Of a DNA stretch of 64,000 nucleotides, positions 20,651-45,756 are shown piece by piece. This DNA is from Candidatus Alloenteromonas pullistercoris (GTDB lineage Bacteria; Bacillota_I; Bacilli_A; RFN20; CAG-826), in the NCBI GenBank assembly GCA_017694295.1, contig JADINA010000019.1, positions 62,001 through 126,000 on the forward strand, given 5' to 3'. How positions within the stretch are numbered: position 1 is the stretch's first letter; every line of letters begins with the position of its first letter. A model generated the notes under the pieces. That model was given only the letters and a program-made list of their open reading frames with translations, was not told the origin of the DNA and did no database searches. Made by a program: the position numbers and the translations under genes.

Positions 20651-20873
20651 GGCTTGGGCCGCCTCGAAGGAGAAAGGCCTCCTGCCGAAGGAAATCGCCG
20701 CCGGGTCGAGGAAGCAATATTGCAAGGGTAGGACCGAGGAGGACGTCGCCGAGATACTCGACTACTATTTTTCGCTGGATTTGAGAGGCGCCCGGCATTT
20801 GCTGCCTTAAGCAAACTTCTGTCAATGGCGAAACTGGACTTCCAGCCGTATCCTTTTTCTTCAAGGTTTTCTT

Positions 20874-20958
20874 TGCGAAATCTGTGACCATGAGCACTTT
20901 TTATACTGCGAAAACTGCAATATTTGATTGATTCACGACTGCGAAAAATGTAATATCG
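20874..20958 (+). repeat. Three iteron-like repeats TGCGAAA..TG, 33-bp period
   Basis: TGCGAAATCTGTGACC (20874), TGCGAAAACTGCAATAT (20907), TGCGAAAAATGTAATAT (20940). Confidence 0.75.
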
Positions 20959-20962
20959 CTGT

Positions 20963-22294
20963 GTGGAACAATTCGAGAGAAAGATATACCAACGGCTGGT
21001 CGACTGGAAAAAAGGCTCTGCGGGACAGACGGCCTTGTTGATCGAAGGTGCCAGACGCGTCGGCAAGACAACCATAGTCAAACATTTTGCGGAGAAGGAA
21101 TATGTCTCTTGCATCTTTATCGACTTCTCCACAGCCGGAGAGGAGGTAAAAAGCCTCTTCGACAACCTGTTGGACTTGAACTATCTCTTTCTTCAGCTCC
21201 AGCTGCTCTTCCATGTGAAGCTGGAGAAAAGAAAATCCCTGATCGTCTTCGATGAGGTTCAGTTCTGCCCGAAAGCCAGGCAGGCGATAAAAATCTTGGT
21301 GGCAGACGGACGATATGACTACATCGAGACCGGATCTTTGATATCCATCCGTCAGAACGTGAAGGGCATCCTCATTCCCAGCGAAGAAGAGAAGTTGAGA
21401 ATGCACCCGATGGATTTCGAGGAATTCCTCTGGGCCATGGGAGACCACTCAACCATCCCTTTCCTGAAAGAGGCTTTCAAGTCTTTGAAAGGGATAGGAG
21501 AAAGGGCGAATAGGGAGGTCCTGCGTCTGTTTCGTTTATACCTTTTGGTCGGAGGGATGCCACAGGCAGTCTCAGCCTATATCCGAGAGAACGATTTTCA
21601 GTCGGTTGACAAGGAGAAACGCAACATCCTTTCCCTTTACCACGACGACTTTCGAAAACTGGATCCGCGGGGCAGATTGTCCTATCTCTACGATTTGATT
21701 CCGGCGCAGCTTAGCTCCGGAAAAACCTTTTTCGTCGATAGAGAAAGGAAGGCCACCAAAAAGAAACTTCTGGAAGAACTTCTTCCGGATCTCATTGATT
21801 CTAGAACCGTTCTGCCGAAATACGACTGCGACAACCCTGAAGCTGGTATGAGCAAATATAGGGACTCCGACAAGTTCAAACTCTATCTTGGTGACGTGGG
21901 TCTGTTTGTCGCGGAGGCTTTCGCCGATAAGGAATTCACGGAGAACGTGCTTTACCGAAAGCTTCTAAGCGACAAGCTCAGTGCGGATTTGGGTTATCTT
22001 TTCGAGAATGCAGTCGCACAGATGCTTTCCGCCTCGGGCTATACGCTTTTCTACAACGTCTTCAAGGACGAGACCGCCCATCGTTACTACGAGACCGACT
22101 TCCTTATCCCTAAAGGCGACAAGCTTTGCCCAATAGAGGTCAAGTCCGGAGAATACCGAAGCCACCGCTCACTTGACATGTTCCAAAAGCGCTATTCCAA
22201 AAAAATCCTCCGTCGCTATCTTTTGACGACGAAGGATCTCCATAAGGATGGGGACATCATTTGCCTCCCCGTTTACATGGCCATGTTCCTTTGA
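20963..22294 (+). CDS. Solitary ATPase, AAA_14 + DUF4143
   Basis: LLIEGARRVGKTTIVKHF Walker A, IVFDEVQ Walker B, YETDFLIP...CPIEVKSG nuclease-like C-term. Confidence 0.9.
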   Translation: MEQFERKIYQRLVDWKKGSAGQTALLIEGARRVGKTTIVKHFAEKEYVSCIFIDFSTAGEEVKSLFDNLLDLNYLFLQLQLLFHVKLEKRKSLIVFDEVQFCPKARQAIKILVADGRYDYIETGSLISIRQNVKGILIPSEEEKLRMHPMDFEEFLWAMGDHSTIPFLKEAFKSLKGIGERANREVLRLFRLYLLVGGMPQAVSAYIRENDFQSVDKEKRNILSLYHDDFRKLDPRGRLSYLYDLIPAQLSSGKTFFVDRERKATKKKLLEELLPDLIDSRTVLPKYDCDNPEAGMSKYRDSDKFKLYLGDVGLFVAEAFADKEFTENVLYRKLLSDKLSADLGYLFENAVAQMLSASGYTLFYNVFKDETAHRYYETDFLIPKGDKLCPIEVKSGEYRSHRSLDMFQKRYSKKILRRYLLTTKDLHKDGDIICLPVYMAMFL

Positions 22295-28859: not shown

Positions 28860-28971
28860 GGAAAAATGTGATAATTGCCTGCGTTAACCCAGGAAAAATG
28901 TGATAATCACCAATGATTAGGTAGGAAAAATGTGATTTTTAATTAAATTTTGTTTGGAAAAATGTGATAAT
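28860..28971 (+). repeat. Four iterons GGAAAAATGTGATAAT with exact 32-bp period
   Basis: Starts 28860, 28892, 28924, 28956; 11-bp core GGAAAAATGTG invariant. Confidence 0.95.
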
Positions 28972-28995
28972 TGTCATAACTTGGAGGGCTTGCCG

Positions 28996-30378
28996 ATGCT
29001 GAAAAGGAAAATCGACGACGTATTGCTTAACTGGAAAAAAGGGGAAGAAAGACTGCCTTTGATCGTTAAGGGGGCTCGGCAAATCGGCAAAACGTTTTCC
29101 ATACGCCGCTTCGGGCAAACTTCCTATAAACGGTTCATTGAGGTGAATTTCATTCTCCAAAGGCAATTTCGCGACATATTCAACGACGGCTTTGAGGTCG
29201 ATTCCATATTGCGCAACATGACTTTGCACGACCCCACCCTTTCTTTCGATGCCGGTGAAACCTTGATTTTCTTCGACGAAATCCAAGCTTGCCCCGATTG
29301 CGCGACGAGTTTGAAATCCTTCAAGCTTGATGGCCGATTTGACGTGATCTGCTCCGGTTCCCTTATGGGATTGAACTACTCCCAAATCGAATCCAATAGC
29401 GTCGGCTACAAGCAGGATTACCTCATGCAATCTCTTGATTTTGAGGAGTTCCTTTGGGCAAAGGGTTATAAGGATGAGATCATTGAGGACATGTATGCGT
29501 CCATGGTGGAGGTAAGGCCGCTTTCAAAGGTCTTGCTCGAGGTCATGGCGGAAAACTTCCGGGAATATATGGTGCTAGGGGGGATGCCTTCGGTCATCGA
29601 TTCCTTCATCGAAAAGCGGAACTTTTCCGGCGCGTTGGCCATTCAACGCCAATTGCTTCTTGATTATGAGGAGGATATAACCAAGTACGCTTTGGGTCTT
29701 GACCATGGGAAAATCTTAAGCGTCTACCGGAAGATACCGGTTTTCCTTGGGAAGGAGAATAAAAAATTCCAAATTACCAAAGTCGCCCACGGCGCCCGCC
29801 TTCGCGAATACGAAGGAGTCGTTGATTGGCTTAAGGATGCCGGCATCGTCAACGTTTGTCATTGCCTTTCCGAGCCGAAATTGCCCTTAAAGGGAAATTA
29901 CCGACCCGATGTTTTCAAATTGTACTTTGCCGATACCGGGCTTCTCATCGCCTCGCTTGACGACGAAGCCCAGGATGACCTTCGAAACAATAGGAACTTC
30001 AATACGTATAAGGGCGCGATTTACGAAAACGCCATCGGCGAGGCGCTTTCAAAACAAGGGTATGGGCTATACTTCTATCGAAACGAAAAATCCACTTTGG
30101 AAATCGACTTCCTGCTCCGCGACGCCTCGTCCCTCGTTCCGGTTGAGGTCAAAGCCAACGACGGGCCGACTGCCTCTTTGAATAAGCTAATCGATTCTCC
30201 TTTGTTCGAAGACGTCGAATACGGGATCAAGCTTGGAAACAAGAACATCGGCTGGAACGGCCGCTTCTTCACCTTCCCTTATTTCCTTTCCTTCTTGCTT
30301 AAGCGTTTTCTGAAGCAGGGGCAAAGCGTATATAATCGCTTGGAGGATGGTTTATGGATTGCTACGAAGAATCGTTAA
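28996..30378 (+). CDS. Solitary ATPase, AAA_14 + DUF4143
   Basis: LIVKGARQIGKTFSIRRF, LIFFDEIQACP, LEIDFLLRDASSLVPVEVKA; ATG preceded by GGAGGG. Confidence 0.9.
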   Translation: MLKRKIDDVLLNWKKGEERLPLIVKGARQIGKTFSIRRFGQTSYKRFIEVNFILQRQFRDIFNDGFEVDSILRNMTLHDPTLSFDAGETLIFFDEIQACPDCATSLKSFKLDGRFDVICSGSLMGLNYSQIESNSVGYKQDYLMQSLDFEEFLWAKGYKDEIIEDMYASMVEVRPLSKVLLEVMAENFREYMVLGGMPSVIDSFIEKRNFSGALAIQRQLLLDYEEDITKYALGLDHGKILSVYRKIPVFLGKENKKFQITKVAHGARLREYEGVVDWLKDAGIVNVCHCLSEPKLPLKGNYRPDVFKLYFADTGLLIASLDDEAQDDLRNNRNFNTYKGAIYENAIGEALSKQGYGLYFYRNEKSTLEIDFLLRDASSLVPVEVKANDGPTASLNKLIDSPLFEDVEYGIKLGNKNIGWNGRFFTFPYFLSFLLKRFLKQGQSVYNRLEDGLWIATKNR

Positions 30379-43089: not shown

Positions 43090-44379
43090 ATGAAGGAAAT
43101 ACAACGTGACTTATATCTGAATCAATTGAAGAAGAAGATGGGAAACGGGCTGGTTAAGGTCATCACCGGCATCAGGCGTTGCGGGAAGAGCTACCTCCTT
43201 TTCAAATTGTTCCGTGACTATCTGCTTAGCGCCGGCGTGAAGCCCGAGCATATCATCGCCCTTTCCCTTGAAGATGACGAAAACGATGAATTCCTCGATC
43301 CCGCGAGGCTATCCGCATATTTGAAATCAAAAATCGGGGACGATCAGGAGACTTACTATATTTTGCTAGACGAAGCCCAGCTCGCCATCACCGAGGCTGA
43401 GCGGCGCGGCAAAGGGACGATCAAGCTCTATGGGATTTTGAATAGCCTCATGAAGCAGGGCAACGTCGATGTTTACGTCACCGGCAGCAATTCCCGCTTC
43501 CTCTCATCCGACATCCTGACCGAGTTTCGCGGCCGCAGCGACGAAATCCGGGTCCATCCCCTCTCCTTTGCCGAGTTCATGTCCGCTTATCCGGGGGATG
43601 TTTATTCCGGGTATCGCGAATATTCCATTTACGGGGGCCTTCCTTACGTCTTGGCTCTTGGCGATGCAGCCGAGAAAGAAAATTACCTAAGCAGGCTTTC
43701 TAGCCACGTATACCTAAAAGACATCATCGAACGGCATTCCCTAAGGGGCGATGTGGTTATGGATGCTTTGGTCGATGTCCTTTCCTCCGACATCGGGGCC
43801 CTCACCAACCCGACGAAGCTCGTCAAAACGTTCGCTTCCAATTCGATGAAGACGAACGTCAACACCATCGCCACCTACATCGATTACCTCATCGATGCTT
43901 TCATCATCTCGAAGGCCAAGCGATTCGACATCAAAGGGAAAAGATACATAGGCTCGCCTTACAAGTATTACTTTGAGGACATCGGAGTTCGCAACGCCAG
44001 GCTCAGCTTTCGCCAAATAGAACCGACCCACGCGATGGAAAACATACTCTATAACGAATTGGCGATCCGCGGGTTCAACGTCGATGTCGGAATCGTCGAG
44101 AAATACGGCAAAAACGATAGGGGGCAGAACACCGTCGCGAACCTTGAGGTCGATTTCGTCTGCAATAGGGGAAGCGAACGTTGCTACATCCAATCGGCCT
44201 ACTCGATTCCCGATCGCGAGAAGATGAGGCAGGAGCAGGCCTCCTTCGATCGGATCGGGGATTCGTTTAAGAAAATCATCGTCGTCCAAGACAACGTCTC
44301 CCCCTGGCATAACGAAAAAGGCTATTTGATCATCAACATATTCGACTTCCTCCTCAATCCCGATAGTTTATCCCTATAA
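43090..44379 (+). CDS. Solitary ATPase, AAA_14 + DUF4143 (subfamily 2)
   Basis: VITGIRRCGKSYLLFKLF, YILLDEAQ, NLEVDFVCNRGSERCYIQSAYSI. Confidence 0.9.
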   Translation: MKEIQRDLYLNQLKKKMGNGLVKVITGIRRCGKSYLLFKLFRDYLLSAGVKPEHIIALSLEDDENDEFLDPARLSAYLKSKIGDDQETYYILLDEAQLAITEAERRGKGTIKLYGILNSLMKQGNVDVYVTGSNSRFLSSDILTEFRGRSDEIRVHPLSFAEFMSAYPGDVYSGYREYSIYGGLPYVLALGDAAEKENYLSRLSSHVYLKDIIERHSLRGDVVMDALVDVLSSDIGALTNPTKLVKTFASNSMKTNVNTIATYIDYLIDAFIISKAKRFDIKGKRYIGSPYKYYFEDIGVRNARLSFRQIEPTHAMENILYNELAIRGFNVDVGIVEKYGKNDRGQNTVANLEVDFVCNRGSERCYIQSAYSIPDREKMRQEQASFDRIGDSFKKIIVVQDNVSPWHNEKGYLIINIFDFLLNPDSLSL

Positions 44380-44523: not shown

Positions 44524-45756
44524 ATGATCAAACGCACCATCGAAGGAAGAATCAAAAACAGCGTCGCCTCCCGGCCGGTCACCTTGATAACGGGGGCCCG
44601 CCAAGTCGGGAAAACCACCTTGGCGACGGCTTTCAGGGAAAATGGGTTCGGGTATGTCTCAATCGACAACACGAACGACATGGTCACGGCCCAAGAAGAC
44701 CCTGAGCTTTTCCTGCAGCTGCATCCTTGCCCGCTTATTATCGATGAGGTCCAGAACGCCCCGGGTCTATTTCTAGCCTTGGAGCATTCGGTCAATTCAG
44801 CCAAACTCGAGAACGTCAGGAATTATGGGATGTATATCCTCACCGGTTCGCAAAGCTATTCGATGATGAAGGGGATAACCGAATCGATGGCCGGACGCGT
44901 CTCCATCATCGAGATGTCCCCGCTTAGCCGGAGCGAGATCCTCGGGCGCGATGAAATCCCTTTCTCCCCCAATGACCTCCCCGCCTTGCAGAAGCGGGCC
45001 AACGAATGCCCATTGTCGGCAAGCGACTTATTCTCCAACATAGTTCGCGGCAGCTTCCCTGAGCTTTACGATAACCCCAAATTGTCCAGATCCGATTTCT
45101 ACGAGTCTTACGTTAGGACCTATATGGAAAGGGACGTCTCCTCCTTATTGAAAGTCGGCTATGTTTCCGCCTTCCGGCGTTTCTTGGAGGCCATTGCCTC
45201 CTTGACCGGGCAAGAGCTCGTTTACGATACTTTGGCGAAGGCGGTGGAAGTGGACGAGAAGACCATCGCGAGCTGGGTGAGCATCCTCGAGGCCGGGCAT
45301 CTGATAACGTTGTTGCGCCCCTATAACGAGACCTCGGTCGTCAAAAGGGTGAGGAAACGTCCGAAGATGTATTTTTGCGATACGGGGCTGGCCTGCCATT
45401 TGGCCCGGATCGATTCCCCGGAGACTTTGTCGGCAAGCTATTTCGCCGGCCGCTTCGTCGAGACCTACGTGGTCAATGAGGTCATCAAGTCATATAAGAA
45501 TGGCGGAATCAACGCCGGCTTCTACTATTACCGGGACAAGGAGCAAAACGAGATCGACCTCCTGATCCTCCATGACGGGACCCTTTACCCAATTGATATA
45601 AAAACCGGGACGAGGTTCGATGCCAAGGCCGTCAAAAGCTTCAAGAAGCTGGAAGGCTCCAAATACCGGATTGGCCCTGGGAGCGTCCTTTGCAACGCGG
45701 ATGCCGTCTATCCGGTTTCCGGTAACGCCTACGCCATCCCGATCTCCTGTTTGTGA
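44524..45756 (+). CDS. Solitary ATPase, AAA_14 + DUF4143 (subfamily 3)
   Basis: LITGARQVGKTTLATAF, LIIDEVQNAPG, YMERDVSSLL, YYYRDKEQNEIDLLI...YPIDIKTG. Confidence 0.93.
   Translation: MIKRTIEGRIKNSVASRPVTLITGARQVGKTTLATAFRENGFGYVSIDNTNDMVTAQEDPELFLQLHPCPLIIDEVQNAPGLFLALEHSVNSAKLENVRNYGMYILTGSQSYSMMKGITESMAGRVSIIEMSPLSRSEILGRDEIPFSPNDLPALQKRANECPLSASDLFSNIVRGSFPELYDNPKLSRSDFYESYVRTYMERDVSSLLKVGYVSAFRRFLEAIASLTGQELVYDTLAKAVEVDEKTIASWVSILEAGHLITLLRPYNETSVVKRVRKRPKMYFCDTGLACHLARIDSPETLSASYFAGRFVETYVVNEVIKSYKNGGINAGFYYYRDKEQNEIDLLILHDGTLYPIDIKTGTRFDAKAVKSFKKLEGSKYRIGPGSVLCNADAVYPVSGNAYAIPISCL

What the first reader, a model, noticed from the sequence alone, without database searches (positions are those of the whole stretch)
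28860..28996. Four GGAAAAATGTGATAAT iterons with an exact 32-bp period before a DUF4143 ATPase
Copies start at 28860, 28892, 28924 and 28956. The 11-bp core is invariant while the spacers are unrelated, and the last copy sits ~25 bp before the start codon. Exact three-turn phasing implies cooperative protein binding on one DNA face, as in plasmid iterons or operators.
Basis: seen in the sequence. Interest (0 to 1): 0.75.

Follow-up and report, generated by a model that had tools for sequence, protein, structure and literature searches.

The report
Self-operator repeats of DUF4143 defence ATPases
Four identical short DNA signals in front of this gene are its own private on/off switch, and almost every member of a huge, unexplained family of probable anti-virus genes carries its own differently worded switch with the same fixed spacing, which gives a handle on how these genes work.

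Summary
Confirmed: four GGAAAAATGTGAT(AAT) copies at 28860/28892/28924/28956, exact 32-bp period, 24 bp before the ATG of an AAA_14–DUF4143 ATPase, and nowhere else in the genome. The array is real and conserved. About nine in ten of 76 orthologues (55–73% identical; several phyla) carry copies of this motif, same strand, only upstream; 129 of 139 spacings are 32 or 33 bp. The protein is PADLOC "PDC-S01", a very common, untested defence candidate (AAA+, winged helix, intact PD-(D/E)XK nuclease). The genome has about 28 paralogues, most with their own, differently worded repeats. Geometry follows protein clade while wording is private: period 32/33 (or double) in 91% of one clade, 23/46 in 89% of another, inverted repeats in a third, none in a fourth (shuffles 4–6%). 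Motif similarity tracks the winged-helix recognition region better than any other protein segment (family-wise p about 0.002). In 15–16 orthologues the last copy fills the −35/−10 spacer. Best explanation: a self-encoded operator that the ATPase reads cooperatively to switch off its own promoter. Binding, repression and the defence role are inferred, not shown.

The parts
28860..28875 (+). operator copy 1, GGAAAAATGTGATAAT
28892..28907 (+). operator copy 2, GGAAAAATGTGATAAT
28924..28939 (+). operator copy 3, GGAAAAATGTGATTTT
28956..28971 (+). operator copy 4, GGAAAAATGTGATAAT, merged with a probable extended -10
   Evidence: in 15-16 orthologues the last copy fills the -35/-10 spacer
28963..28971 (+). 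predicted extended -10 element TGTGATAAT of the ATPase gene
   Evidence: read from sequence by analogy with orthologue promoters TTGACA-N17-TATAAT; a good -35 is not evident here; inferred
28979..28986 (+). ribosome-binding site region (cttggagggc contains GGAGG)
   Evidence: sequence
28996..30378 (+). AAA_14-DUF4143 ATPase (PADLOC PDC-S01), presumed reader of the array
   Evidence: Pfam; PADLOC; AlphaFold2 pLDDT 89
29692..29931 (+). winged-helix domain (residues about 233-312)
   Evidence: AlphaFold2 secondary structure; Foldseek hits to Cdc6/Orc1 on origin DNA
29746..29835 (+). residues 251-280 (helix 2 and recognition helix), the segment whose variation best tracks motif variation
   Evidence: partial Mantel scan, family-wise p 0.0015-0.0035
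29932..30330 (+). PD-(D/E)XK nuclease domain (E344, D371, E384, K386)
   Evidence: residues invariant in 67 orthologues and kept in clades 2-4
20872..20954 (+). second, differently worded array of the same clade geometry (TGCGAAAA..TG, period 33, about 3 copies) before another DUF4143 gene
20963..22294 (+). DUF4143 ATPase paralogue (L028, GTG start chosen by script)
43090..44379 (+). DUF4143 ATPase paralogue of clade 1 (L034)
44524..45756 (+). DUF4143 ATPase paralogue of clade 3, which lacks repeats (L010)

Best explanation
The array is a self-encoded operator. The DUF4143 ATPase made by the gene binds each 13-16-bp copy with its winged helix. Neighbouring protomers touch at a fixed 32-33-bp step, and the last copy overlaps the promoter, so the bound protein switches off its own transcription. 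Shown here: conservation, strand and step of the array across phyla; its overlap with the promoter in Bacillota orthologues; private wording with clade-fixed geometry; covariation with the recognition helix; the array being part of the acquired unit. Inferred: physical binding, AAA+-driven cooperativity, repression, and relief of repression when the protein is titrated or changes nucleotide state, for example during phage infection.
For: Cross-phylum orthologues keep motif and step, so whatever reads the array must travel with the gene. Geometry is a clade trait. Motif similarity rises with protein identity and peaks at residues 251-280; the same region is the top window in the period-23 clade, though not significant there. 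The last copy fills the -35/-10 spacer in 15-16 orthologues. AAA+ plus winged helix resembles Cdc6/Orc1 on origin DNA and MalT. The 13-mer is unique in the genome. Filled versus empty queH-rpsB locus: array plus gene is the inserted unit.
Against: No binding or expression data. The covariation is modest (partial r about 0.23), and label permutation does not fully remove phylogeny. The clade-4 replicate is not significant (family-wise p 0.23). In the window gene itself the -35 is weak. The sign of regulation is inferred from position only. Clade 3 has no repeats, so self-operators are not universal in the family. Nine of 76 orthologues have no copy of the core by the strict regular expression, though several carry a diverged repeat.
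Confidence: 0.75

Rival explanations
1. The array is the end of a one-gene mobile element: the ATPase-nuclease recognises it for its own insertion or homing, and promoter control is secondary.
For: The array lies at the 5' edge of the inserted unit, with ATAAAAT on both sides. Family counts are patchy, 2-28 per genome in one genus. Internally deleted relics keep the array plus only the last 44-49 codons in two genomes.
Against: Copies occur only upstream and on one strand; the downstream side has 0.08 copies per gene. No transposase. The 13-mer array is single-copy in the genome. One empty site only, with the flanks at 76% identity.
Confidence: 0.12
2. The sites belong to a host CRP/FNR-type regulator (AAATGTGAT resembles a CRP half-site).
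For: The wording AAATGTGAT resembles the CRP half-site (own knowledge). A Fusobacterium homologue has TGTGA-N6-TCACA.
Against: No inverted partner half-site in the window or most orthologues. Paralogues use unrelated wording at the same step. The sites follow the gene across phyla.
Confidence: 0.03
3. The gene product binds the array to activate rather than repress, or holds itself there as an inactive sentinel that is released by phage.
For: Upstream copies could serve an activator; STAND relatives such as MalT are activators. The protein is a PDC-S01 defence candidate.
Against: The last copy occupies the -35/-10 spacer, where bound protein normally blocks polymerase.
Confidence: 0.08
4. The repeats act in RNA as a leader or attenuator.
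For: In Bacteroidales the array reaches to about 14 nt from the ATG, so some of it is probably transcribed.
Against: No Rfam match; one-strand direct repeats with a DNA-like fixed step; covariation with a winged helix.
Confidence: 0.02

Closest known systems
PDC-S01, phage defence candidate (PADLOC; PMC12988326)
   Same: The protein matches PDC-S01 models over its full length (E 2e-147): ATPase fused to a PD-(D/E)XK nuclease.
   Different: No operator or regulation found described; activity untested in the literature held.
arCOG03166-type AAA+ ATPase fused to HTH and RecB nuclease (PMC4158269)
   Same: Same domain order; suggested there to be a defence or plasmid gene.
   Different: No upstream repeats found in the passages read; membership of this protein in arCOG03166 was not tested.
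ParR/parC partition iterons and other autoregulatory direct-repeat operators (own knowledge)
   Same: Direct repeats overlapping the promoter of the gene whose product reads them.
   Different: ParR is a ribbon-helix-helix protein with ParM; here an AAA+ nuclease with no partner, and wording that differs in every paralogue.
Plasmid replication iterons
   Same: Phased direct repeats next to a DNA-binding protein gene; the fold is initiator-like (Cdc6/Orc1 hits).
   Different: Chromosomal contig, promoter position, no Rep gene nearby.
Cdc6/Orc1 and MalT (structural neighbours)
   Same: AAA+/STAND ATPase plus DNA-binding domain.
   Different: Added PD-(D/E)XK domain; about 11-14% identity; top PDB match is an uncharacterised Pyrococcus ATPase (2qen).

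Membership tests
AAA_14-DUF4143 ATPases | Pfam AAA_14 and DUF4143 above cut-off | tested here: met
   PF13635 115.7 bits (cut-off 28.1) and PF13173 77.5 bits (cut-off 27)
PDC-S01 (PADLOC) | match to PDC-S01 models over the whole protein | tested here: met
   E 2e-147 over residues 1-438
PDC-S01 (PADLOC) | protects against phage | not testable with these tools
   candidate by genomic embedding; validation pending for most such candidates (PMC12988326)
active PD-(D/E)XK nuclease | E, D and ExK residues kept | tested here: met
   E344, D371, E384, K386 invariant in 67 orthologues; clade 1 paralogues have QxA instead
self-encoded operator | sites travel with the gene and sit on its promoter | tested here: met
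self-encoded operator | gene product binds the sites | not testable with these tools
   indirect only: winged-helix covariation
plasmid replication iterons | replication initiator (Rep) gene and origin next to the repeats | tested here: not met
   neighbours are a sigma factor, esterase, malic enzyme and FMN reductase in a 151-kb contig
CRP/FNR operator | inverted half-sites TGTGA-N6-TCACA | tested here: not met
   sequence of the array
transposon ends | matching sites at both ends of the unit | tested here: not met
   2.7 copies upstream on + against 0.08 (+) and 0.03 (-) downstream

The most novel reading that the evidence does not exclude
A single-gene defence or selfish family in which every copy writes its own address: private operators of clade-fixed geometry keep dozens of related ATPase-nucleases from cross-regulating each other, hold each one as a repressed or inactive filament on its own promoter, and let competing DNA (phages carrying look-alike arrays) titrate or trigger it.
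Probability: 0.25. Interest if true: 0.92.

Novelty: new variant of a known kind. Interest (0 to 1): 0.8.

Why it matters
PDC-S01 is reported as the fourth most common defence system across prokaryotes, with nearly 40,000 instances counted (PMC12988326), yet I found no described mechanism. A private, promoter-embedded operator in front of most members of three of its four clades in this genus gives each protein a known DNA target, separates its DNA-binding from its nuclease function, and offers a natural set of orthogonal protein–operator pairs (32/33-bp, 23-bp and inverted geometries) for structural and regulatory work. It also raises the question why a 1.4-Mb genome keeps about 28 of them.

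Tried and rejected
Chance or simple tandem duplication: rejected. Rfam RNA element: none. Plasmid DNA similarity to the array: only weak hits, best E 0.5. Empty site at the malic-enzyme locus of the genus: gene order differs in the 13 relatives, uninformative. Phage decoy arrays: motif pairs without any DUF4143 gene occur in several viral contigs, but the looser pattern is no commoner than its reversed control (10 against 8 contig stretches); only the GGAA form exceeds it (6 against 1), so this stays a lead. The neighbouring TTCCGTYATAT array of one phage was not found in 395 class genomes. A regulon was not searched with mismatches genome-wide; the exact 13-mer has no other site. Literature: DUF4143 occurs in one held paper, PDC-S01 in three; none found on upstream repeats.

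Full report
OBSERVATION. Three are identical over 16 bp; the third ends TTTT, so the invariant core is the 13-mer GGAAAAATGTGAT. It occurs four times in the 1.42-Mb, 40-contig genome, all here. A shuffled window gives 0.74 matches at up to 3 mismatches against 6 observed.

THE GENE. 28996–30378 encodes AAA_14 plus DUF4143. PADLOC calls it PDC-S01 with E 2e-147, a phage-defence candidate reported as the fourth most common defence system across prokaryotes, with 29,494 bacterial and 9,986 archaeal instances and validation pending for most such candidates (PMC12988326). AlphaFold2 (67 orthologues, pLDDT 89) gives an AAA+ core, a helical lid, a winged helix at about 233–312 and a PD-(D/E)XK domain at about 313–445. 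Foldseek's best PDB matches are an uncharacterised Pyrococcus ATPase, then Cdc6/Orc1 on origin DNA; MalT and STAND proteins follow. Nuclease residues E344, D371, E384 and K386 are invariant in the orthologues.

ORTHOLOGUES. Eighty relatives at 55–73% identity come from Bacillota, Bacteroidota, Elusimicrobiota, Fibrobacter, Spirochaetota and Actinomycetota. Their upstream regions carry [G/C/T]GAA(A/T)n TGTG(A/T) repeats. In 76 measured genes, 67 have at least one copy and 64 have two or more; mean 2.7 upstream on the gene's strand, 0.07 on the other strand, 0.08 downstream; 129 of 139 spacings are 32 or 33 bp. In 16 genes the last copy overlaps TTGAnn–spacer–TAnnnT promoters, in 15 of them with the motif filling the 17-bp spacer, such as TTGACA-AGGCGGGAAAAATGTGA-TATGAT.

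UNBIASED TEST. Scanning 395 genomes of the class for a motif pair, without reference to any gene, found 8 genomes; the reversed pattern found none. Four carry an intact orthologue right behind the array, two a C-terminal remnant of 44–49 residues, two none. Those last four genomes have no intact orthologue elsewhere (best 29–36% identity). At the queH–rpsB locus one species has array plus ATPase, a relative has only the array, and a third has neither. The inserted unit starts a few bases before the first repeat, with ATAAAAT on both sides. Array and gene thus move as one unit, and the gene can be lost alone.

A FAMILY-WIDE SYSTEM. The genome holds 28 DUF4143 matches (27 full genes and a fragment), and genus members hold 2–28. 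Most of the paralogues here have their own repeats, and cores are not shared beyond single chance-like matches. In 124 genes, mostly of the genus plus nine plasmid homologues, protein clades predict geometry. Clade 2, with the window gene: best period 32/33 or 64–66 in 91% of 64 genes (shuffles 6%). Clade 4: 23/46 in 89% of 27 (shuffles 4%). Clade 3: nothing (2 of 20 beat all shuffles). Clade 1: inverted repeats, often 40 or 73–76 bp apart, and proteins that have lost the ExK nuclease residues. Controls: 47 other genes gave 5 nominal positives and 6% at those periods. Homologues at 24–57% identity on plasmids of Segatella, Glaesserella, Bacteroides, Criblamydia, Vibrio, Agathobacter and Collinsella also have their own roughly 32–33-bp arrays.

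WHO READS IT. Across 104 clade-2 genes motif similarity rises with protein identity. In 58 orthologues, scanning 20-residue windows with total identity partialled out, the three best of 88 windows cover residues 251–280, helix 2 and the recognition helix (partial r 0.21–0.23, family-wise p 0.0015–0.0035). In clade 4 the best window is the equivalent region, but it is not significant (p 0.23, n = 24). The permutation does not fully remove phylogeny, so this is good but not conclusive evidence.

MECHANISM. The protein binds its copies in a row at a fixed step and covers its promoter. The step is 3.05–3.14 turns in clade 2 and 2.19 turns in clade 4, so contact between neighbouring protomers, rather than exact same-face phasing, best explains the constancy (inference). 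Position over the −35/−10 spacer points to repression. What lifts it, and whether the nuclease then attacks phage DNA, is not shown.

NOVELTY. The domain architecture and the defence candidacy are known (PMC4158269, PMC12988326). I found no description of the repeats, but the library holds only open-licence papers and no preprints. Self-operators are a known kind; a paralogous ATPase-nuclease family with private wording and clade-fixed geometry is, to my knowledge, a new variant.

Noticed in passing
L163 1254-1470 (and L166 190-400): A phage contig without any DUF4143 gene carries two GGAATTTTGTGAT copies 32 bp apart beside an array of TTCCGTYATAT repeats: possible decoy sites.
   Followed up: partly
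L184 920-1010 (250-kb viral contig): Three GAAAAATGTG copies at 33 and 32 bp in a mostly non-coding stretch of a large phage with no DUF4143 gene, followed by CCACAATATATAGTGG-like palindromes.
   Followed up: partly
L183, L188, L190: The same short leader (two AAAAATGTGAT copies, then a ribosome site) stands before different genes in three viral contigs; looks like a dispersed phage promoter element.
   Followed up: no
own paralogues L021-L024, L027, L029-L034: Clade 1 DUF4143 proteins have QxA in place of the nuclease ExK and go with inverted-repeat operators: probably nuclease-dead regulators or a different activity.
   Followed up: partly
L193, L197: Two independent relics keep the array plus only the last 44-49 codons of the ATPase, i.e. 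similar internal deletions.
   Followed up: partly
30330-30378: The ATPase reading frame runs about 20 codons past the usual end of its orthologues, through a TATAAT and ribosome site of the downstream malic-enzyme gene (start 30354), as if the gene had been placed against that promoter.
   Followed up: no
L163 2026-2098: ARAGORN predicts a tRNA with anticodon tta (stop suppressor) in this phage contig.
   Followed up: no
L207 (19.5-kb stretch), L211: A relative has five DUF4143 genes within 18 kb (L207), and another has several in 28 kb (around L211): clusters rather than scattered singles.
   Followed up: no
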